A DNA stretch of 40,291 nt, from the NCBI GenBank assembly GCA_903868145.1, contig CAIPTY010000040.1, forward strand, positions 1 to 40,291, read 5' to 3'. This DNA is from an uncultured Desulfuromonadales bacterium (GTDB lineage: Bacteria > Desulfobacterota > Desulfuromonadia > Geobacterales > Pseudopelobacteraceae). The translations under genes and the position numbers were made by a program. The notes beneath the pieces are model-generated. The model made no database searches. It worked only from the letters and a program-made list of their open reading frames with translations, and was not told the origin of the DNA. Shown piece after piece: positions 27,407-37,763 of the stretch; the stretch's first letter is position 1, and the number at the start of each line of letters is the position of its first letter.

Positions 27407-28735
27407 TCAGGAGAGTTGACGGCCACCTTCTGCAGCCCACTTCTCCAGCATCGGAGTAGTAACGGATTTAGGACGCTCGATGGCATAACCCAGACCGCGG
27501 TCCCAGGTAATATTGGCCATGCAGCCCAGGGCACGACCGACGCCGAACAGAACGGTGTAGTAATCGAATTCAGTCAAGCCGTAGTACATCTGGATAACGC
27601 CTGACTGTCCATCCACATTCGGCCACGGGTTCTTGACTTTACCAAGCCTTTCCAGCACAACGGGAGCTACTTCAAAAATCATGGAGACGACTTTGAAGAG
27701 TGCGTCATCCTTGAGGCCGGGGGTTTTGAGACAAAACTCGCGCTGTGAGATGTAGCGAGGATCAGTCTTGCGCAGAACGGCATGACCATAACCGGGGATA
27801 ACCTGACCGGCATTGAGTGTATCCAGGAGAGCAGCTTCGATCAAATCCGGAGTCGGATCGACGCCTTTGCAATATTTTTCCTGGAACTTGAGGGTCCAGT
27901 CGAGAACTTCCTGATTGGCGAGGCCATGCAGCGGCCCGGCAAGGCCGTTCAGACCGGCAGAGTATGCGTAGTAAGGGTCAGAAAGTGCGGAGTGAACCAA
28001 GTGAGTTGTGTGGGCCGATACGTTTCCTGACTCATGGTCGGAATGCAGAATGAAGTACATGCGGGCAACGTCTTTGTACTCTTCACTCTGACCGATCATG
28101 TGGGCAAAGTTGGCACCCATGTCGAGGGTCGGGTCGATGGCAATCTGCTTGTCGCCACGATATTTGAGGTTATAGATGAAAGCGGCAATAACCGGGATGC
28201 GTGCAACGATATCGCTGGCATCTTCATAGACGGATTCCCAGGCGGTCATCTTGTTGAACTTGCCGGAGTTATAACTCGCGGCAAATTTGGAGTCCTTCTG
28301 CAGAGTCAGAATTGCCACGGAGAGCATCACCATCGGGTGACTGTCACGCGGCAGGGCGCGAACGGCATCAAACACATACTGCGGAACAACCTGACGGGTT
28401 TTCCACTCGGCAACAACTTCGGCAACCTGAGCATCGGTAGGAACATCGCCGGTCAGCAGGAAATACCAGAAAGACTCGACAGTCGGATAGTCTGAGCCGG
28501 GAGCCTTTGGCAGTGCAGCAAATGTTTCAGGGATGTTCTTACCGCGGAAACGAATTCCTTCCTGGGGATCAAGGTAGGAGATGTCGGTTACCAGACTGCG
28601 GATGTCTCGGGCGCCACCGATACACTGGTCGATATTGACCTGATCGATGATAACCTTGCCGAACTCCTTCACAAGCCTGGTGATGCGGGGGCGGTGAGCC
28701 TCAATCTTCTCTTTAAGCGTCTCTTTCAGTGCCAT
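27407..28735 (-). CDS. gltA: Citrate synthase, eukaryote-like type
   Basis: A 442-aa enzyme joining acetyl-CoA and oxaloacetate, the entry to the TCA cycle. Active-site residues are His270 (GPLHGLAN), His318 (PGYGHAV) and Asp375 (NVDGQSG), and substrate-contact HSDHESGN is at 231-238. The length, the long N-terminal helical part (ALKETLKEKIEAHRP) and these motif contexts match the mitochondrial-type synthase known in Geobacter, not the NADH-inhibited hexameric enterobacterial type. It stands alone between terminators. It suits an organism that oxidises acetate, consistent with the acetate symporter at 39488. Confidence 0.95.
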   Translation of the reverse strand: MALKETLKEKIEAHRPRITRLVKEFGKVIIDQVNIDQCIGGARDIRSLVTDISYLDPQEGIRFRGKNIPETFAALPKAPGSDYPTVESFWYFLLTGDVPTDAQVAEVVAEWKTRQVVPQYVFDAVRALPRDSHPMVMLSVAILTLQKDSKFAASYNSGKFNKMTAWESVYEDASDIVARIPVIAAFIYNLKYRGDKQIAIDPTLDMGANFAHMIGQSEEYKDVARMYFILHSDHESGNVSAHTTHLVHSALSDPYYAYSAGLNGLAGPLHGLANQEVLDWTLKFQEKYCKGVDPTPDLIEAALLDTLNAGQVIPGYGHAVLRKTDPRYISQREFCLKTPGLKDDALFKVVSMIFEVAPVVLERLGKVKNPWPNVDGQSGVIQMYYGLTEFDYYTVLFGVGRALGCMANITWDRGLGYAIERPKSVTTPMLEKWAAEGGRQLS

Positions 28736-28831: not shown

Positions 28832-28892
28832 ATTTCGTGCCGTAGTTATATTCAAAGCTTTGGTAAAATGCAACAAAAATGTTGCGGGAATT

Positions 28893-30089
28893 CTATCCCG
28901 CCAAAATCAGCAGTTCCTCGCAGGAATAGGTCAACTTCTTGAGGCCATCCTCGCTTATATAGAAGGTGTTTTCGATCCCCACCGCCCCTTCACCCGGAAA
29001 CACCAGTTTCGGCTCAAAAGCGAAGACCATTCCCACCTCCAGCCTTTTGTCGTTAAATCCGCGGGCAATAAAAGGGTATTCATCAAGCTCGATTCCAATG
29101 CCGTGTCCGATGAATGATACCTGCGCACCCCTGGCGCCCATGAAACTGTCGGCATATCCCCTGTCCACGGCCAGAGCCAGACATTGATCGTAGACATCTC
29201 CCCAGGTTGCGCCCGGCAATGCAGATTCGATCATACACTGCTGCACTTTCACCATATCCTCGTAGCCTCTCTGCAGACGATCCGATATGCCGCCGATGGC
29301 AAAGACGCGCGTCTGATCTACAATATAGCCGTCAGAACAGCCGCCGAAATCAACCATGACCGGTTCGTTGGCGGCGATACGCTTCAGGCCTGCTCCCTGC
29401 GCGAACGAGGTGTTAAGACCCATGCCCCCCAGGGGCGCGTCAAGGTAGGAAGGAACCGCGCTGTCGGCTCCGGAAAATATCTGGGCATAAAACAGTTCCG
29501 AATTGAATCCCCGCATCCGTATCAAACCCTGATGACCATCCTTTCGGGCCGTATACTCAAGCTCGGCGGCAATTTCAAGATCGGTGGCTCCCACCCTGAT
29601 GATCTCGGCTGCCCGCTGAAAGACCCGATCAACCTGATCGGCAGCATCTTTCAGTAAATGGATCTCATAGAGGGACTTGATCATCCGCACCTGGCGGATG
29701 ATTGGCGCGGCATCCACAAATTCTGCCTGCGGATATACCTTGCGGTAACGTTCGTACAGACTGACCGGAATCACATCCAGTTCCATTCCGATCCGCCCCG
29801 GCTCACGGTAATCATACTGTGCAAGTATACCTGGAATATCCTTCATGTTGCTGAAGGGGACAACCTCCCTGAGCCCCGACTCCATGCGCGCCCGCTGAAA
29901 GTCCTTGCGGGCCATGTAGATCGGCTGGCCATCGTTCGGCACATAGAGGCAGCCGCTCTGGATCGAGCCGGTAAAATAGAAGAGATCGGCGCTCTGGATG
30001 ATAAGTACGGCATCCAGACGTGATTGCTCCATCAGTTCCTGGAGTCGCTTGCAGCGGTGTTCGAGTTCAGTGGCAGGTGTCAGACGCAT
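28893..30089 (-). CDS. M24-family metallopeptidase (Xaa-Pro aminopeptidase type)
   Basis: A 398-aa pita-bread-fold enzyme. An N-terminal creatinase-like domain (about 1-150, with LEHRCKRLQELMEQ) precedes the catalytic domain with metal ligands in VMVDFGG (Asp), IVDQTRVF (Asp), FIGHGIGIELDE (His), AFEPKLV (Glu) and GIENTF (Glu). It would cut X-Pro bonds or a related amide in the cytosol. The start is 11 bases after the stop of the zinc-ribbon gene, so it is the last gene of the five-gene run, or simply a passenger in it. Confidence 0.9.
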   Translation of the reverse strand: MRLTPATELEHRCKRLQELMEQSRLDAVLIIQSADLFYFTGSIQSGCLYVPNDGQPIYMARKDFQRARMESGLREVVPFSNMKDIPGILAQYDYREPGRIGMELDVIPVSLYERYRKVYPQAEFVDAAPIIRQVRMIKSLYEIHLLKDAADQVDRVFQRAAEIIRVGATDLEIAAELEYTARKDGHQGLIRMRGFNSELFYAQIFSGADSAVPSYLDAPLGGMGLNTSFAQGAGLKRIAANEPVMVDFGGCSDGYIVDQTRVFAIGGISDRLQRGYEDMVKVQQCMIESALPGATWGDVYDQCLALAVDRGYADSFMGARGAQVSFIGHGIGIELDEYPFIARGFNDKRLEVGMVFAFEPKLVFPGEGAVGIENTFYISEDGLKKLTYSCEELLILAG

Positions 30090-30100
30090 GGAAAAATTCC

Positions 30101-31225
30101 TTATCGTATTGATTTCATAATTATTGCAATCAGCAACAGGGCAAACAGTACGGCAATAACCGACAGGGCGATTTTTGCAACGGAGTACGGCCTTTCGCCC
30201 TGTACCTGACCGGTACGGGCATTGATAATGAATCGGAAGGTCTTGTCCCGGTAGCGGTAGGCGCTGATCCAGACCGGCAGGAGGACGTGTTTGAAGGTGA
30301 TGTCATCATACTGGCTTCTCGCGGCAGTGATCTGCTGGTGGTTGCCGCCGATATCCCGTTCGATGGAGCGGCGGACACTGCCGTCCATCAGAGCCTTGGC
30401 CTGTTCAAATCCGGCGCCGAGATCAACCTGGTAGGCCTCGGCCTGGAAGCCGCTCAGATATTCGTCCGAATAGGTGACCAGATTTTTGAGATCCCAGGGT
30501 TCAAGTGACGCAATGATTTCAGCAGGCAGTGAACATCCCGCCAGCACCAGAATATCATCAAAAATGTTCTGAACGGAACCGCTGGCCGGGTACCAGCGGG
30601 TGCGGGTGATCGTACGGCTCCTGGTGACTGTTTCGCCGTTCTGATCCTCCTCGTCATAATATTCGGTCTCATGATAATCCTCGCCGCGCTGCCCGTCGTA
30701 CTGGGTGGTAACCCGCGAATCATATGTCCAGCAGGGAATATACATGCCCTTGATGCCACCGGTGGTACTGGCAAAGTTCTTGAGTTCGCCCGGAGCGAAC
30801 CAGAGACCGGACAGCCATTTCCGGAAATCATCGGCCGCTGTAGCACGGGTGACCTTGAACGGCAGCACGGCGCCCGGTTTTATAAGGCGGCTGGCCTTTG
30901 CCTGCGCTGTCAGGCGCGAACCGCAGAACGGGCAGGTACTCAGGGATATGTTCGGGTCAACGGTCGAGACCGCGCTGCATGACGCGCATTTGACGGTCTG
31001 CTTCTCTTCCGATTCGCCCTGCTCCGACGCCCGCGCGAAAAATTCATAAAAATCCAGTTCCCTGACCTGCTCAACCTGCTGCTCAATTTTGTTCTCTGCG
31101 CCACAGTAGGGGCATTTTAGGACTGATTTCCCCGGAGCAAATTCCAGTTTTGCTCCGCAGGCGGTACAGGGGAAATTCTTGCCATGCGTTTCTGTGTTGA
31201 GTTGGGGTTTTGCACTATCCGCCAT
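30101..31225 (-). CDS. TFIIB-type zinc-ribbon protein with C-terminal membrane anchor
   Basis: A 374-aa protein starting MADSAKPQ at an ATG with GGAGG upstream; a longer reading to 31273 is unsupported. Two zinc ribbons stand near the N-terminus (CTACGAKLEF with CPYCG, and CASCSAVSTV with CPFCG). A beta-rich middle has YIPCWTYDSRVTTQY and the Arg-rich RSRTITRTRWYPASG, followed by a single C-terminal TM (about 350-370). It resembles the YdjG-type proteins that accompany YdjI-type SPFH proteins in Bacillus. Likely tail-anchored with the ribbons in the cytoplasm. Confidence 0.85.
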   Translation of the reverse strand: MADSAKPQLNTETHGKNFPCTACGAKLEFAPGKSVLKCPYCGAENKIEQQVEQVRELDFYEFFARASEQGESEEKQTVKCASCSAVSTVDPNISLSTCPFCGSRLTAQAKASRLIKPGAVLPFKVTRATAADDFRKWLSGLWFAPGELKNFASTTGGIKGMYIPCWTYDSRVTTQYDGQRGEDYHETEYYDEEDQNGETVTRSRTITRTRWYPASGSVQNIFDDILVLAGCSLPAEIIASLEPWDLKNLVTYSDEYLSGFQAEAYQVDLGAGFEQAKALMDGSVRRSIERDIGGNHQQITAARSQYDDITFKHVLLPVWISAYRYRDKTFRFIINARTGQVQGERPYSVAKIALSVIAVLFALLLIAIIMKSIR

Positions 31226-31286
31226 AGATTGTTTCCTCCGTAATCGATACATGCAACCTGCCGGGTCTGGCACCCGGAAAACGAGT

Positions 31287-34253
31287 CTACCTCTTCATAG
31301 CCAGCGGGAAGTCCGGAACCGTCTGCGGTTTGGTGGTGGTTGGCGTCTGTTTTCCACCGGTTAACCTTTTGACCTCCTCGGACAGATACAGATCCAGGCC
31401 GTTGATGGTTATTCTTCCATTTTTCATCACATCCGCACCGCCATCCAGTCCCGCCACCAAAGCCTTGGTAAACGCCCCGTTACCCCACGCATCGTCCTCA
31501 AGCGAATACTGTCGACCCGTGGATGAGGCAAAAACCACCACGCCGTTCTCGGCGCTGGAGAGTTCATTAACCACGGAATTGATGTCGCTCAGGGCGCGCC
31601 TGCCCCCCATTACGTTGCCGCTGTGACAGGTATCCATAAAGAGAATCGCTTTGCCCGGCAGAGAGGTCAGGGTATTCTTGATGTCGGTGTTTGCTATGCC
31701 GGTTCGTTTGAGTTTTTCAGGATCCGTATTGTGAGGCAGGTAGTAGAATACACCGGTGGAGTCGTTCACCCCATGTCCCGCTATGAAGACAATTGCGATG
31801 TCCCGGCTGGTGGTCTCTTTCTGCAGCCAGTCAAGGCCGTCCATTATGTCGTCGCGGGTAGCCTGCCTATCGGTCAGCACCTTCACGACGACATCGCGGT
31901 ACAGTCCGTTTTTCTGTCTCAGCAGCGCCTGGGCAAAGTCCCGGGCATCCTTGGCGGCAAATTTAAGGGTAAGGTCTTTCTGTGCGTACTCGCTCACCCC
32001 CACCACCAGGGCATAGAGTTTCGGCTTGATGAGGGATTCGTCTATTGCGGTTCCTCCCCAGATAAGTCTGATGGAGGAGGGTACGGACGACCCGTGACGG
32101 TTTTCGGCGACCAGGGAAATCTCGGAATCCTTTTCGGGCACGGTGATAGTTATGGTCTGGGCTCCGTTTTTCCGCTTCTTGTCAACGGCTTTAAGACTGC
32201 GGGATGCGGTCGAGGAGGGTCGACCGTCAATCAGTACCCTGATTCCGGTCACGGGACTATCGCCGGGGGACGTGGCTTCATAGTCGACCACGATGGTGGC
32301 AGTGCTGATTCTGGAGCCTTCCTGCGGCGAGATGATCGTTATGACTGGCGGAAGTTTGCCGGAGATTTCTTTTGAAGAAACGTCATCATCGGCCTGCTGG
32401 GCTATTGCCGTGTCTACCGCCTGAATCTGCGGCTTCGTCGCGGGCCTCAACTTGTTCAGGTTGAAATCTTCGATAAAGCTGGAGATAAGCTCAGGCCTGT
32501 ACTTTTCCTTCCTGAAACGGGAAGCGGGAAAGAAATCGGCCGCCTTGTCCTTGCCGTTGTTGATGTGCCAGCCGATCAGATCCTCCCCCCCCGGTGAGGC
32601 ATCATAGTAGCCGTAGGGAGTCCAGAGCACCCAGCGCTGATTGTCCTTGATAAACACCAGCGAAATCAGCCAGGCGCCATCCTTCATATTGAACCATGCC
32701 AATGTGCCGCTGGCGTTTGCAAAAATTGCCACACGACCGTCCTCGGAGATGGCCAGGTCGGAAGCGGTCTGGGGAGACGACTTCGACCAGAGAATCTTGC
32801 CCGCACGATCCACGCAGTATATTATAAAGTTGGTCGCAACCAGGGCTGACTCGCCATCCGCCGAAACCACATGGTAGCGGTACGCGCTGTTGCTCGCCAG
32901 CTTGATGGTCTTGCCGTTAACGCTGAATTCAGCCTTTCCCTTCTCGATCTTGAAGTTCTCATGGTTGTAGATCTGCCTGCCGAAACCGTCGCCACCCTGG
33001 GCGGGGGAAACGGTTGTCAGCATGCGATCTCCCAAAGAGAAGAGCAGCCGTTTTGGTATTGAAGCTTTGTGCGGGTCATGCTCCTGCATGGCGAGCAGCA
33101 CCGTCAACCCGTCCCGCGATACCTTCAGCTTTTCCTTGACGTTTGCAAACGTGAGTTGTGTGGGGTATTTTTCAAAAAGCAGTTCACCGGTTCGCGAATA
33201 GACGACAATCCCCGGGGTATCGGACGTGGCGATTATGCGACCGTCCGACAGAACGGCGAGGCTCGTGATATATCCGGAGAAAGGGTTTTTGTAACGGGTA
33301 ATTCTTAAATTTTCATCAAACTGAAGAATCGATTTAACGCCCGCAAAGGCAATGGTGCCGGCAGCATAGAGACGAACACCGTCCGGCGCCCAGGCTACGA
33401 CCGCATTGGAATTGGCGCTCAACGGACGTGTATCCAGCACCGAAAGGTCGGAGGCATCCAGAATATCTATGCGCGCAGCGGCGGAATAGCCCACCGCAAG
33501 CTTCTTCCCGTCGGGGGAGATTGAAAGCGACGACTTCATGATTGGGTCCCGGGATGAGTCGCGAATGGCGCTTTGGGAGAGCGAGCCGGTGGGGGAGACG
33601 TCATAGCGCTTGATTACCCCATCAAAACCGGCTGAAAAAAGAACCCTGCCGTCAGGCGAGAACTTCGTCGCCGCAAGTCTCACCGTCTTATCGTGTGGTT
33701 CGTCCGATGCCGCTGTCGCAGAGATGCCGTCATGCCCGGAACGTATCCGGTATGTCCGCATCCCTCCCTGATAACCGACCGCCAGCAGCGTACCGTCCGG
33801 TGAGAAGTCCAAGGTGTCAATGACACTCGGAAGTCCCGATATCCGTTTCAGCATTTTACCGCTGGAACGGGAGAAAAAATAGACGTTGTACCCATCCTCG
33901 GGTTTTCCCGGCTTGCCTCCGGAAAAAGAGGTTAATCCGCCACAGGCGACCAGCGAACCATCGGCAGTTATCGCCACCGTATACAGCAATGACTCATTCC
34001 CGCTCCCCAGCGGAGGCCTCATCACCTTCAAAAGTTTTCCATCCCTCAGGCTCCAGATGCGAATGGACTTGTCAAACCCGGCAGTTGCCATTACCGAACC
34101 GATTCTGTCAGTTGCCACGGAGCGGATGTTCTGAGTATGCATCCCGGTTTCAATCCGGAGAGCCGGGTCTTTGAAGGGTTCTGCAGCTCGCGAAGGTGAC
34201 ACTGCTGCGAGGCACAGAACAACAGCAACCGAAAAAATACGATGAAAAATCAT
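31287..34253 (-). CDS. Exported WD40-propeller caspase-family peptidase
   Basis: A 988-aa protein beginning MIFHRIFSVAVVL (signal peptide, cleavage near SRAAEP, about 20-24) at an ATG with GGAGG upstream. WD40-type repeats fill about 30-560 (SVATDRIGSVMATAGFDKSI, DTLDFSPDGTLLAVG, KFSPDGRVLFSAGFDGVI). An Ig-like segment (about 635-725, PVITIISPQEGSR) leads to a C14 caspase domain (746-960). The catalytic dyad is complete: His827 in FIAGHGV and Cys876 in MDTCHSG. It is probably periplasmic or surface-bound. The 143-bp gap upstream contains a palindrome and no terminator. It sits between an SPFH gene and a zinc-ribbon gene, all on one strand. Confidence 0.92.
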   Translation of the reverse strand: MIFHRIFSVAVVLCLAAVSPSRAAEPFKDPALRIETGMHTQNIRSVATDRIGSVMATAGFDKSIRIWSLRDGKLLKVMRPPLGSGNESLLYTVAITADGSLVACGGLTSFSGGKPGKPEDGYNVYFFSRSSGKMLKRISGLPSVIDTLDFSPDGTLLAVGYQGGMRTYRIRSGHDGISATAASDEPHDKTVRLAATKFSPDGRVLFSAGFDGVIKRYDVSPTGSLSQSAIRDSSRDPIMKSSLSISPDGKKLAVGYSAAARIDILDASDLSVLDTRPLSANSNAVVAWAPDGVRLYAAGTIAFAGVKSILQFDENLRITRYKNPFSGYITSLAVLSDGRIIATSDTPGIVVYSRTGELLFEKYPTQLTFANVKEKLKVSRDGLTVLLAMQEHDPHKASIPKRLLFSLGDRMLTTVSPAQGGDGFGRQIYNHENFKIEKGKAEFSVNGKTIKLASNSAYRYHVVSADGESALVATNFIIYCVDRAGKILWSKSSPQTASDLAISEDGRVAIFANASGTLAWFNMKDGAWLISLVFIKDNQRWVLWTPYGYYDASPGGEDLIGWHINNGKDKAADFFPASRFRKEKYRPELISSFIEDFNLNKLRPATKPQIQAVDTAIAQQADDDVSSKEISGKLPPVITIISPQEGSRISTATIVVDYEATSPGDSPVTGIRVLIDGRPSSTASRSLKAVDKKRKNGAQTITITVPEKDSEISLVAENRHGSSVPSSIRLIWGGTAIDESLIKPKLYALVVGVSEYAQKDLTLKFAAKDARDFAQALLRQKNGLYRDVVVKVLTDRQATRDDIMDGLDWLQKETTSRDIAIVFIAGHGVNDSTGVFYYLPHNTDPEKLKRTGIANTDIKNTLTSLPGKAILFMDTCHSGNVMGGRRALSDINSVVNELSSAENGVVVFASSTGRQYSLEDDAWGNGAFTKALVAGLDGGADVMKNGRITINGLDLYLSEEVKRLTGGKQTPTTTKPQTVPDFPLAMKR

Positions 34254-34338
34254 TGGAAGCCTCCCCGAAAGTGCCCGACTGACAATATAACTTGTGGCAT
34301 GCCGATTTCTATAAAAACTCTGTGTTCTCAATCTCCCG

Positions 34339-34351
34339 GTGTTTCAAACAC
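34339..34351. promoter_or_regulatory. 13-bp palindrome ahead of the caspase gene
   Basis: GTGTTTCAAACAC is a perfect palindrome around a central base, in the only long gap (143 bp) of the five-gene run. It may be an operator giving the caspase gene separate control. Confidence 0.35.
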
Positions 34352-34396
34352 TTTATTACAGGTCACATCAGATCTGTCTCGAAGACGAGGGGGACG

Positions 34397-35515
34397 TCAC
34401 CCCGGGGGCAGTGGCGGCGGAGCAGCAGCGAACAGTCCCGACACCTCGGAAACCTGCCCGGCGGGGCTCCATGCCGCCATTCCCTGTTTCCAGACCAGCG
34501 ATTCACGGGTAATCTGCCCGGCAGATACCATCTGCTGCAGGACGCTCATGTCAAACGGGCCGGACTGCTGTCCGTTAACCGCCACAAAAAACTGCGTCTG
34601 CGGCGGCAACGGCGGTGGAGCAACGCCGCCCGCGGCGGCCTGGGGCTGCCCCGCAAAGACTCCGCCCATTGCACCTGCCACCTGCGCGCCCATGCCGAAC
34701 CCCATGCCAACCCCGACACCGGCAGCGGCCAGTCCCCCCGGATTGTTTGCCGCGTCGTGAATGGAATTGGCTGTCTCATACTGGGTGAACTGCTGCATGT
34801 TGCCGATGGCCCTCATGGCGCCGGCCTTGTCGATGGCGCGTTCCACCTCCTCCGGCAGGCCGATGTCCTGCACCTGTACCTCGGTCAGTTCAATACCCAG
34901 GGCTTCGATAGCCGGTGCGATCCTGGTCTTCATGGTCTCGCCCAACTGGACAACCTTGCTCTCCAGATCGATGATCGGAATACCCGCGTCCGGCATGACT
35001 TCCTTGATGCGCATGCCGATCTTGCCGCGCAGGTTGTCCTCGATAGATTCTGTCGTGAAATTGCCATCGGTTCCGACGATCTCACGGATAAAGACCGCAG
35101 GATCCTTGAGCTTTATGGAATAGATGCCGTAGGCGGTCACGCGGACAGCCCCGAATTCGGGATCGCGCATGGTAACCGGGCCGGGCGTTCCCCATTTCAG
35201 GTTGGTGAACTGGCGGGTCGAACAGAAATAGACCTCAGCCTTGAAAGGGCTTTCAAAACCGTATTTCCAGCCTTTCAGTGTTGCCAGCACCGGCAGGTTT
35301 TGGGTCTCCAGCGTGTAGGTGCCGGGCTTGAACACATCGGCCAGTTGACCTTCATTGATAAAGGCGGCAAGCTGCCCCTCACGTACCACAAGTTTTGCGC
35401 CGTACTTGATTTCGTTGCCGTAGCGCTCAAACCGGTAGACCAGCGTGTCCTTCGTATCATCCAGCCATTGGACGATATCAATCAGTTCACCTTTTAATTT
35501 GTCCCATAATCCCAT
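34397..35515 (-). CDS. SPFH-domain (YdjI-like) protein with GYF_2 domain
   Basis: A 372-aa protein starting MGLWDKLKGELIDIVQW. The SPFH/virion-core-protein domain fills about 1-245 (TLVYRFERYGNEIKYGAKLVV, GTYTLETQNLPVL). A Gly/Ala/Met-rich linker (about 258-295) leads to a GYF_2 domain (about 305-355; GQQSGPFDMSVLQQMV and SLVWKQGMAAW) that would bind a Pro-rich peptide. The end itself is Pro-rich (PPPLPPG), so self-assembly is possible. SPFH proteins form rings or membrane-associated microdomains. AGGAGG stands before the ATG. The kinase gene upstream ends 61 bases away. Confidence 0.9.
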   Translation of the reverse strand: MGLWDKLKGELIDIVQWLDDTKDTLVYRFERYGNEIKYGAKLVVREGQLAAFINEGQLADVFKPGTYTLETQNLPVLATLKGWKYGFESPFKAEVYFCSTRQFTNLKWGTPGPVTMRDPEFGAVRVTAYGIYSIKLKDPAVFIREIVGTDGNFTTESIEDNLRGKIGMRIKEVMPDAGIPIIDLESKVVQLGETMKTRIAPAIEALGIELTEVQVQDIGLPEEVERAIDKAGAMRAIGNMQQFTQYETANSIHDAANNPGGLAAAGVGVGMGFGMGAQVAGAMGGVFAGQPQAAAGGVAPPPLPPQTQFFVAVNGQQSGPFDMSVLQQMVSAGQITRESLVWKQGMAAWSPAGQVSEVSGLFAAAPPPLPPG

Positions 35516-35576
35516 GATAGAGCCTCCTCAATTGTTTTTTTGCTGAACCGTCATAAAGTTTCATGGATTGCCGGTG

Positions 35577-37763
35577 TTACGGCTGCTGAAAACCCGGATC
35601 GGGTGCGAGAGTGAAAAAGAACGTTGCGCCGCAGCCCGTCTCCGCTTCGGCCCAGATTCTGCCGCCATGGCGGGTGATAATCCGCTGGGCGGTTGCCAGC
35701 CCGATCCCGCTGCCGCTAAACTGGGATTGGTCATGAAGCCGTGTGAAAACACGGAAAAGGCTCCCGGCATCCTTCATATCAAAACCTGCGCCATTGTCAC
35801 TGACAAAAAAGACCGGCGGCCCGTCATTTCGGCTAACGCCGAATTCTATGCGGGCCATCACGGCGGCGGCGCTGTACTTCCAGGCATTGCCGATGAGATT
35901 CGTCAGGAGAATCTTGAGCAGAGCCGCGTCACCGGTTGTCGTAACCCCTTGCGCCACAATCGTTTCAGCCGATCTTTCGGGCTCAGCCTGAACGAGTTCG
36001 TGCAGCACCTGATCCACGAGCTCCGACAGATCAACCGGAGTCGGGATATACTCCATCCTGGTCAGTCGGGAGAGCTTGAGCATGCCCTCAATCATTTCAT
36101 CAAGCCAGAGGCAGGATTCGTAGATCCTCGAAATATAGGTGCGCAGATGAGGTTCGAGAACCTCGTCATCAAGCACCAGTTGGCAGTACCCCGAAATACG
36201 GGTCAGGGGCCCCCGTAAATCATGTGACACAGAATAATTGAACGATTCAAGCTCTTTATTGGCGGCCTCACGCTTTTTTGCCTGGTCAGCCAGTTCCGAG
36301 TTAAGGTGCCGTATCCGCTCAAGGTACATCCGATCGTTCTCTTCGGTCAACTTGCGTGACGTTATGTCGCGATCAAAACCGAGTATGTAGTTTCGCCCCG
36401 CCAGCCTGATAAGACCGGCATGAATCTCCAGCGGCAGGCGGGAGCCGTCTTTCCTGACATGCCAGACCTCCTGAGCCACCCACTCGCCCGATATGATACG
36501 ATCGATCAGGTCTGCCGCAAACGCATTGGTTTCGGGGGCATTGAGATCCTGTATGTGCATCGCACGGAGTTCCTGAAGGGTAAATCCGTGCTGGGAACAG
36601 GCCGCATCATTGGCATCCACAATCCGCCCCGCCTCAGCCCCCTCTGTGCCGATGATGAAAATTGAATCCGGAGCACGCTCAAACAGGGTGCGGTAACGCC
36701 CCTCGCTTTCCCTGATGGCCGACTCGGAAGATTCCAGAGAAGCGAGCATGCTGTTGATAGAGTCGGCCAGTCTCTCAAGCTCATCCTCGCCCGTTACCTT
36801 GAGTCGGGCGGAGACGTCCCCGTTCCTGCTGATATCTCCGACCGTGGCGCTGAGCGCAGCCAGACGTTTCAGTACCGCTCCACGGATAAAGACCAGTATG
36901 ACACCGCAGAATACCGAACTGCTGAGAAGCAGCATCAGCAGGATGTACAGAATTGATGACGTCCCCTGTTTCATGAGAGAACGATTTTCCGTAATGCTGA
37001 CAAGATATGACGGCTGACCGGACAAATCCCTGAGATGGGCATAGCCTGACACGTTGGCTTCATCCAGGGTTTGAGAGAGCATCCCGCCGCTTGTCTTTAA
37101 TTCGTTATGAGCGCGAAGCGATTCATTTTTCAGAGAACCTGGAGCAAGCCCGGAAACCTGCGCAACCAGCCCCGTCACCTTGTTGATGTGCTTCAATTCA
37201 CGTTTGCCGAGGAAACAGCCGACCTGCAGAAGTCCCTGAGGCACTCCGTCACTTCCCGTAAGGCGCCGCGCAGAAAGCATGAAGGGTTCGCCTCCAATCT
37301 CCACGGTGCCCGTGTGGTTTTCACGGGTGTTTGTCACGAGCACGGAGGCAAGGGCATCCAGAGCCCGTTGTGTGCCGTGCCCTACGGGAATCTGCCTGCC
37401 GTCACCAGAGTCAATTTGCTGAACACGCATCAAGCCACCGGTGGTGTTGTACAGCGCCACCAAATCTATCCGGTGGCTCTTCAGGCTTATCTCGCTGAAA
37501 TGTCGCTGATGAATTGATGAGAGGCTCATCCCCGTACGAAGCCCCTCTGTCAACTCCTGCGAGAACTCTTGACACGCTGAATCAATCTGCCCAATCCTGG
37601 CGTCAATGTGGTTATAGACCTGCTGAATATGATCGACGACGGTTTTCTTTTCCAGCGTTCGGTAGCTGTTAAGAAGAATAAAATCGGAAATTCCCGCAAC
37701 AATAAAGAGCAGCGCGACGAACGTACAGATAATTACGAGAATTATTTTTCGGGAAAGATTCAT
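35577..37763 (-). CDS. Sensor histidine kinase (CHASE4-like, HAMP, PAS)
   Basis: A 728-aa inner-membrane kinase beginning MNLSRKIILVIICTF. TM1 is about 7-32; a CHASE4-like sensor region (about 35-265, with DHIQQVYNHIDARIGQIDSACQEFS); TM2 about 270-292; HAMP about 293-345; PAS about 350-470; a coiled coil; HisKA with SVSHDLRGPL (His514); HATPase with NLIGNAWKYS, SDNGAGFDM and GSGIGLA. I prefer the ATG at 37763 to the GTG at 37823. There is no receiver domain, and no response regulator is adjacent. It heads the same-strand run that includes the SPFH and caspase genes. Confidence 0.9.
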   Translation of the reverse strand: MNLSRKIILVIICTFVALLFIVAGISDFILLNSYRTLEKKTVVDHIQQVYNHIDARIGQIDSACQEFSQELTEGLRTGMSLSSIHQRHFSEISLKSHRIDLVALYNTTGGLMRVQQIDSGDGRQIPVGHGTQRALDALASVLVTNTRENHTGTVEIGGEPFMLSARRLTGSDGVPQGLLQVGCFLGKRELKHINKVTGLVAQVSGLAPGSLKNESLRAHNELKTSGGMLSQTLDEANVSGYAHLRDLSGQPSYLVSITENRSLMKQGTSSILYILLMLLLSSSVFCGVILVFIRGAVLKRLAALSATVGDISRNGDVSARLKVTGEDELERLADSINSMLASLESSESAIRESEGRYRTLFERAPDSIFIIGTEGAEAGRIVDANDAACSQHGFTLQELRAMHIQDLNAPETNAFAADLIDRIISGEWVAQEVWHVRKDGSRLPLEIHAGLIRLAGRNYILGFDRDITSRKLTEENDRMYLERIRHLNSELADQAKKREAANKELESFNYSVSHDLRGPLTRISGYCQLVLDDEVLEPHLRTYISRIYESCLWLDEMIEGMLKLSRLTRMEYIPTPVDLSELVDQVLHELVQAEPERSAETIVAQGVTTTGDAALLKILLTNLIGNAWKYSAAAVMARIEFGVSRNDGPPVFFVSDNGAGFDMKDAGSLFRVFTRLHDQSQFSGSGIGLATAQRIITRHGGRIWAEAETGCGATFFFTLAPDPGFQQP

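What the first reader, a model, noticed from the sequence alone, without database searches (positions are those of the whole stretch)
28893..37763. Five-gene run: sensor kinase, SPFH-GYF, exported WD40-caspase, zinc-ribbon anchor, M24 peptidase
All five genes lie on one strand with gaps of 61, 143, 61 and 11 bp and no terminator seen between them. SPFH (YdjI-like) and TFIIB-type zinc-ribbon (YdjG-like) proteins are known neighbours in the Bacillus pspA-ydjGHI envelope-stress locus. Here a 988-aa caspase with an intact His/Cys dyad sits between them. The SPFH protein ends in a GYF domain and a Pro-rich tail, and a CHASE4-like kinase leads the run. A plausible reading is an envelope-stress or phage-sensing device in which a membrane scaffold gates a death-like peptidase. 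The joint function is inference.
Basis: partly seen in the sequence, partly recalled or inferred. Interest (0 to 1): 0.75.

Follow-up and report, generated by a model that had tools for sequence, protein, structure and literature searches.

The report
Caspase gene lodged beside membrane-scaffold genes
Five neighbouring genes are really there, but only the membrane-scaffold and zinc-ribbon genes form a widely shared pair; the caspase-like protease between them comes from a common family of exported proteins and was apparently inserted once in this lineage, so the proposed scaffold-gated death device is not shown.

Summary
In detail: kinase, SPFH-GYF, exported WD40-caspase, zinc-ribbon anchor and M24 peptidase lie on the minus strand with gaps of exactly 61, 143, 61 and 11 bp. 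The interpretation splits. SPFH and zinc-ribbon genes do belong together: a zinc-ribbon relative lies directly downstream of SPFH in 54 of 74 loci examined from this order. The caspase is not part of that pair. Fourteen genomes of the order have SPFH then this zinc-ribbon gene with no caspase between; only the window and one contig of bin G139 have it, and their caspases and zinc-ribbon proteins are sisters, so one insertion explains both. In 80 loci of caspase relatives no SPFH or zinc-ribbon relative was found in the flanks held, though only 44 have 3 kb on both sides. The three sister species have no C14 match. About 0.14 such neighbours are expected by chance. The caspase has a signal-like N-terminus while SPFH-GYF has no membrane segment, so direct gating is unlikely. 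No PspA was found in the genome. Best reading: a PspA-free YdjI/YdjG-like envelope cassette that has picked up a periplasmic protease gene. Ordinary, with a few useful details.

The parts
35577..37763 (-). Membrane sensor histidine kinase: two membrane segments (7-25, 274-292), CHASE4-like domain, HAMP, PAS, HisKA, HATPase; no receiver domain matched and no response regulator in the run. Among the loci compared its cluster also holds the gene before SPFH in two sister species (G066, G068) and a gene about 3.2 kb upstream of SPFH on contig C54 of G139.
34397..35515 (-). SPFH protein, Band_7_1 type (PF13421; SPFH 34811-35440), with C-terminal GYF_2 domain (34445-34588) and a PPPLPPG tail; no membrane segment by hydropathy
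31287..34253 (-). Probably exported WD40-Ig-C14 protease, 988 aa: N-terminal signal-like segment, two beta-propellers, Ig-like domain, caspase domain
34182..34253 (-). Signal-like sequence, about residues 1-24 (cleavage site by eye)
   Evidence: hydrophobic segment 1-19, score 2.08; a hydrophobic N-terminal segment in 87 of 96 full-length family members, window included
33186..34145 (-). First beta-propeller (residues 37-356)
   Evidence: AlphaFold model, mean pLDDT 85; PDB 7bie, Z 36.5, rmsd 1.8 over 283 residues
32559..33185 (-). Second propeller-like region (about residues 357-565; limits by eye)
   Evidence: strand pattern of the model; double-propeller chains among the best matches
32058..32351 (-). 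Ig-like domain, Big_7 (about residues 635-732; Pfam 636-702)
31287..32021 (-). C14 caspase domain (about residues 745-988); His827 at 31773-31775 and Cys876 at 31626-31628
30101..31225 (-). Zinc-ribbon membrane protein: CxxC at residues 20, 38, 80, 98 and C-terminal membrane segment 352-370 (30116-30172)
28893..30089 (-). M24 (Xaa-Pro dipeptidase-like) peptidase; follows SPFH or zinc-ribbon in many close relatives
34254..34396 (.). 143-bp gap between SPFH and caspase; holds a weak sigma-70-like match (34311-34284, minus strand)
28884..28901 (-). Terminator-like hairpin overlapping the end of the M24 gene
   Evidence: such sites are not above chance in number

Best explanation
This is an SPFH and zinc-ribbon envelope cassette, in close relatives often followed by an M24 peptidase gene and citrate synthase, into which a gene for an exported WD40-Ig-caspase was inserted, apparently once. 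Likely working (inferred): the soluble SPFH-GYF protein assembles on the inner face of the inner membrane, anchored by the tail-anchored zinc-ribbon protein as YdjI depends on YdjG and YdjH in Bacillus, but without PspA. The GYF domain and the PPPLP tail may hold subunits or a partner together. The caspase goes through the membrane, binds a ligand or protein with its propellers, and cuts envelope or extracellular proteins with its His827/Cys876 pair. It shares at most transcription with its neighbours. Shown here: gene order, domains, conservation, sister relation of the two inserted copies, signal-like N-terminus, intact catalytic pair, fewer amino-acid than silent changes in the protease domain. 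Inferred: location, activity, ligand, regulation.
For: SPFH and this zinc-ribbon gene lie together with no C14 gene between in 14 of the 18 genomes with a zinc-ribbon match; a relative of one of two zinc-ribbon families lies directly downstream in 54 of 74 order loci. Sister species keep SPFH-M24-citrate synthase (G067) or kinase-SPFH-M24 (G068) without caspase. Caspase and zinc-ribbon proteins of the window and of G139 contig C79 are sister pairs. No SPFH or zinc-ribbon relative in 80 loci of caspase relatives. Of 100 fetched loci with an SPFH match, one has a C14 match, 6.7 kb away (L090). Chance expectation within three genes is 0.14. Signal-like N-terminus; pN 0.16 against saturated pS 0.81 for the window and G139 C14 domains. 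No PspA match.
Against: The insertion has survived in two lineages whose zinc-ribbon proteins are only 75-78% identical, with the same kinds of gene on both sides and different genes further downstream in G139, which is more than a passing accident would give. The chance figure for a C14 gene immediately downstream of SPFH is 0.024, so the place is mildly unusual. The zinc-ribbon gene is itself missing beside SPFH in 20 of 74 order loci, sister species included, so the pair is not strict. Many caspase loci have short flanks: 44 of 80 hold 3 kb or more on both sides, 30 of 80 hold 9 kb. Export rests on a hydropathy scan, not on a dedicated predictor.
Confidence: 0.72

Rival explanations
1. Coupled envelope-stress unit: one transcript makes an inside membrane-repair scaffold (SPFH plus zinc-ribbon) and an outside protease (caspase) that clears damaged envelope proteins; the kinase sets expression. 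The parts act in one response without touching.
For: Same strand, short gaps, no terminator-like site in the gaps; arrangement kept in two lineages; a kinase of the same cluster stands before SPFH in G066 and G068.
Against: Not found in the other relatives examined; no response regulator in the run; the three sister species lack both caspase and zinc-ribbon matches.
Confidence: 0.17
2. One reading: the SPFH scaffold gates the caspase as a death or anti-phage effector.
For: Intact catalytic pair; PADLOC generic caspase model matches at 2.6e-15 over positions 1-166 of 453; second lineage with the same order.
Against: Opposite sides of the membrane by signal-like N-terminus and hydropathy; no SPFH found in 80 loci of caspase relatives; no other protein of the run matches a PADLOC model; no PspA match.
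Confidence: 0.05
3. The SPFH-caspase-zinc-ribbon trio is a small mobile or repeatedly traded cassette, since G139 bears a caspase-free copy on contig C54 and the trio on contig C79 with different downstream genes.
For: Two arrangements in one bin; C54 SPFH groups with another genus, C79 zinc-ribbon with the window.
Against: Bin G139 may mix two organisms; no repeats or recombinase were sought at the edges; G+C of the caspase (0.551) equals most of its neighbours (0.546-0.593).
Confidence: 0.06

Closest known systems
Bacillus subtilis pspA-ydjGHI locus (SPFH protein YdjI, double zinc-ribbon protein YdjG); PMC8581546 and PMC11237479, passages seen by term search
   Same: Band_7_1-type SPFH gene beside a membrane protein with two zinc ribbons; B. 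subtilis is among the control genomes that ring for PF13421
   Different: No PspA match in the genome; the only TPM (YdjH-type) match is on another contig; GYF plus Pro-rich tail where PMC11237479 gives the Bacillus band-7 protein (named YdjL there) a C-terminal zinc ribbon; extra caspase, kinase and M24 genes
Prokaryotic metacaspases / orthocaspases (C14); PMC3501461, passages seen by term search
   Same: C14 domain with His/Cys pair; WD40 is the accompanying domain type named as most numerous in that survey, and N-terminal helices that may be signal peptides are noted there
   Different: Particular order signal-like segment - two propellers - Ig - C14, shared by the family found here; the terms SPFH and Band 7 do not occur in that paper's main text
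CHASE2-cyclase / FecR-TPR / transglutaminase neighbourhoods of the same caspase family in Geomonas and Geobacter
   Same: Same full-length caspase family, roughly 40-48% identical, including a second copy in the window's own genome (G000:C46) beside a CHASE2-cyclase
   Different: No SPFH or zinc-ribbon relative found there

Membership tests
PspA-YdjGHI envelope-stress system | SPFH protein of the Band_7_1 type | tested here: met
   PF13421 1e-103; control rings in 4 of 14 genomes, B. subtilis among them
PspA-YdjGHI envelope-stress system | Neighbouring membrane protein with two zinc ribbons | tested here: met
   Four CxxC, ribbon matches, C-terminal membrane segment; homology of the middle part to YdjG not tested
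PspA-YdjGHI envelope-stress system | PspA present | tested here: not met
   PF04012: no match in the 97%-complete genome, control rings in 9 of 14
PspA-YdjGHI envelope-stress system | YdjH (TPM domain) in the locus | tested here: not met
   PF04536 only on contig C26
PspA-YdjGHI envelope-stress system | C-terminal zinc ribbon on the SPFH protein | tested here: not met
   GYF_2 and PPPLPPG tail instead; no CxxC
C14 caspase-like peptidases | C14 domain over curated cut-off | tested here: met
   PF00656 64.1 bits, cut-off 21.4
C14 caspase-like peptidases | Catalytic His and Cys | tested here: met
   H827 and C876 invariant in 49 of 49 aligned sequences; that these are the dyad is by motif, recalled
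C14 caspase-like peptidases | Proteolysis after Arg/Lys | not testable with these tools
   needs purified protein
EACC1-associated caspases (NF047832) | Score over NCBI cut-off | tested here: not met
   93.5 bits against 140
Known anti-phage system | Partner genes of a described system in the run | tested here: not met
   Only the generic caspase model matches; the four other proteins match nothing in PADLOC-DB of 2023 at E up to 0.001

The most novel reading that the evidence does not exclude
In this lineage an exported propeller-caspase became the outside arm of a PspA-free SPFH and zinc-ribbon membrane-damage sensor, so that damage felt on the inner face is answered by proteolysis in the periplasm.
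Probability: 0.08. Interest if true: 0.6.

Novelty: new member of a known kind. Interest (0 to 1): 0.24.

Why it matters
It shows that the caspase neighbour, which made the run look striking, is most likely a single lineage-specific insertion, and puts the weight on the SPFH and zinc-ribbon pair. That pair stands here without a PspA gene, so it must do something of its own, and it can be tested alone. The GYF domain with a PPPLP tail, in the place where more distant relatives carry a zinc ribbon, gives a concrete handle. Many exported propeller-caspases, some with recurring cyclase/FecR neighbourhoods, look unstudied (inference) and are a better place to ask what such proteases do.

Tried and rejected
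Psp system: rejected, no PspA match. Defence island: PADLOC gave only a partial generic caspase match. Mobile origin of the caspase by composition: G+C 0.551 and GC3 0.654 lie in the range of its neighbours. Plasmid relatives are distant: 167 records match, 2 of them over at least 80% of the query, all under 60% identity. SPFH in phages: 4 records, none covered over 80%. Zinc-ribbon middle part: of 33 Pfam families at E up to 1 the best 25 are shown, and all 25 lie in residues 7-116, the ribbon part; no solved relative at E up to 0.1; the single-sequence model had pLDDT 41 and was not used. Whole-model fold search of the caspase was filled by propellers, so the C14 and Ig parts were not tested by fold. 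Remnants of caspase or zinc-ribbon genes in stretches of the three sister loci: none convincing. G129 keeps a 34-residue zinc-ribbon fragment beside SPFH.

Rows dropped or weak: of 18 genomes with a zinc-ribbon match, G018 looks spurious (E 3.4e-4, a stop inside), G129 is a fragment, G135 is split in two pieces and counted as adjacent, and in G138 the gap to SPFH is 635 bp. My simple ORF caller loses genes under longer antisense ORFs (for example SPFH in L034), so the searches were re-made with tblastn. Against a wide reading of the pair: by homology a zinc-ribbon relative is directly downstream in 54 of 97 SPFH loci with room to see it (3 more end too soon), that is 54 of 74 in the order but 0 of 23 elsewhere in the phylum; there the next gene often has four CxxC motifs, which is why a looser count gives 60 of 88. 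These loci were chosen by me from the hits, the best ones first, not at random. My crude GYF pattern matched 43 of 85 SPFH proteins. Several CHASE2-cyclase, FecR and similar labels are weak (as low as 21 bits), and some of the 80 loci are the same contigs as order genomes already seen (for example L114 and L053) or two loci of one genome. Chance estimate assumes 3000-4000 genes per genome and uses C14 counts typed in and the genome list. Comparing the places listed, the nearest other C14 genes on an SPFH contig are about 7 kb (G122) and 8 kb (G013, a distant second SPFH) away; contigs are short in many genomes. The C14 tree's bootstrap had not settled; window-G139 support is 80/93. The caspase list was cut by the tool; one search shows no such cut.

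Literature: searches listed no paper that joins SPFH and caspase genes (listings, plus passages of PMC7159879, where SPFH occurs once, in a reference title); searches gave nothing used here. The library is open-access only.
Full report
What is there. The five ORFs, their strand and their gaps (61, 143, 61, 11 bp) are as described, and Pfam confirms the domain names. The organism lies in the order of Geomonas and Geobacter: contigs of other order members (G044:C19, G039:C2, G008:C58) equal named Geomonas and Geobacter contigs in length, with identical C14 domains.

The SPFH and zinc-ribbon pair is the core. The 141 held genomes of the order were searched. SPFH matches 80 and this zinc-ribbon protein 18. 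In 14 of the 18 the zinc-ribbon gene follows SPFH with no C14 gene between (G083, G134, G126, G137, G138, G125, G131, G074, G101, G127, G100, G133, G124, G135). G129 keeps a fragment there, G018 is probably spurious, and G000 and G139 are the caspase cases. Many SPFH proteins about 50% identical are followed instead by a TFIIB-type zinc-ribbon protein of about 230 aa (PF13453 checked on one member). By tblastn with both zinc-ribbon families a relative lies directly downstream of SPFH in 54 of 74 order loci and in 0 of 23 loci from elsewhere in the phylum; 3 loci end too soon. By a looser measure, a same-strand next gene with two or more CxxC motifs, the count is 60 of 88 (14 same strand without, 14 opposite strand, 2 loci end). 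So the pair is common but not strict: several close relatives, the three sister species among them, have lost the zinc-ribbon gene. M24 and citrate synthase genes commonly follow in close relatives. The kinase is narrower: among the loci compared its cluster holds only the window, G066, G068 and G139.

The caspase is a guest. In the order only two places have it beside these genes: the window, and contig C79 of G139, which opens with what reads as the last 12 codons of an SPFH gene, then the caspase, then the zinc-ribbon gene. Contig C54 of the same bin has SPFH followed at once by what reads as the start of a zinc-ribbon gene. The C79 caspase is unbroken by stops apart from scaffold N gaps, at which the frame shifts. 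Its C14 domain is 74% identical to the window's over 245 residues and is its sister in the tree (80/93); the C79 zinc-ribbon protein is also sister to the window's (87/91), while the C54 SPFH groups with another genus (96/98). One insertion explains both: kept in two lineages, or seen in one lineage whose contig was binned into G139. The C14 domains differ far less in amino acids than in silent sites: pN 0.16, pS 0.81, the latter saturated. The three other genomes of the genus have no C14 match and no zinc-ribbon match.

From the caspase side, a profile of nine full-length relatives was used to scan one genome each of 84,980 species through two peptide patterns; 245 stretches encode a relative and the best 80 loci were kept (close relatives of the window may be left out by the tool). 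No SPFH or zinc-ribbon relative was found in them (hmmsearch; tblastn). Flanks are limited: 57 of 80 hold 1 kb or more on both sides, 44 hold 3 kb, 30 hold 9 kb, and 77 hold 1 kb on at least one side. Nine loci have a CHASE2-cyclase match, nine a FecR match and seven a transglutaminase match, some of them weak. The window's own genome has a second member, 48% identical, beside a CHASE2-cyclase, and eight C14 genes in all. From the SPFH side, 100 fetched loci have an SPFH match and one of these has a C14 match, L090, 6.7 kb away; the G139 contig L036 has the C14 match but only the SPFH tail. With 85 C14 genes in 37 of the 80 SPFH genomes, about 0.14 neighbours within three genes and 0.024 immediately downstream are expected by chance.

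Topology argues against gating. By hydropathy the kinase has two membrane segments; SPFH-GYF and M24 none; the caspase only its N-terminal one; the zinc-ribbon protein a strong one at the C-terminus and a weak one in the middle. A hydrophobic N-terminal segment precedes the first propeller in 87 of 96 full-length caspase-family members. The caspase model (mean pLDDT 85) shows a seven-bladed propeller at about 37-356 (Z 36.5 to 7bie, rmsd 1.8), a second propeller-like region, an Ig-like domain and the C14 domain. Hence the caspase most likely works outside the inner membrane and SPFH inside it (inference).

Comparison with the known. In Bacillus, YdjI and PspA need YdjG and YdjH for membrane localization, and PspA focus formation needs YdjI (PMC8581546, passages). 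The locus is described as PspA with a protein of band-7 plus C-terminal zinc ribbon (named YdjL there), double zinc-ribbon YdjG and TPM protein YdjH (PMC11237479, passages). Here no PspA was found in the genome and the TPM match is elsewhere, and the SPFH tail is GYF plus PPPLP. In 60 of 85 SPFH proteins a PP-P type motif lies in the last 25 residues; many of the rest, from more distant relatives, end in CxxC ribbons. This is a variant of the YdjI/YdjG pair, not a Psp system. A GYF domain binding a Pro-rich tail is recalled knowledge of GYF domains, not tested here.

Verdict. The run is real; the pair is common; the five-gene device is adjacency plus, most likely, one insertion. A shared response without contact remains possible (0.17), direct gating unlikely (0.05).

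Noticed in passing
window 34397-34620 and relatives: SPFH proteins of this order mostly end in a PPPLP-type tail, in the window after a GYF domain, whereas more distant relatives end in a zinc ribbon: a possible domain swap that may make a self-binding scaffold.
   Followed up: partly
L035 and L036 (G139 contigs C54 and C79): One bin holds both SPFH-zinc-ribbon and SPFH-caspase-zinc-ribbon arrangements, with different sequences; either two organisms or two loci.
   Followed up: partly
L051, L053-L056, L093, L098, L117, L118 (L114, L115, L119 are the same contigs as L053, L054, L055): Propeller-caspases near CHASE2-cyclases, often with FecR-TPR and transglutaminase genes: a recurring neighbourhood of unknown role.
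   Followed up: partly
L051 6423-8183 and 1265-6322: The window genome's second full-length caspase also neighbours a two-partner secretion transporter (ShlB/FhaC type) and a 1685-aa ORF not examined.
   Followed up: no
window 27407-28735: A citrate synthase that also matches the eukaryotic-type model (TIGR01793) below its cut-off follows the run and keeps that place in many close relatives.
   Followed up: no
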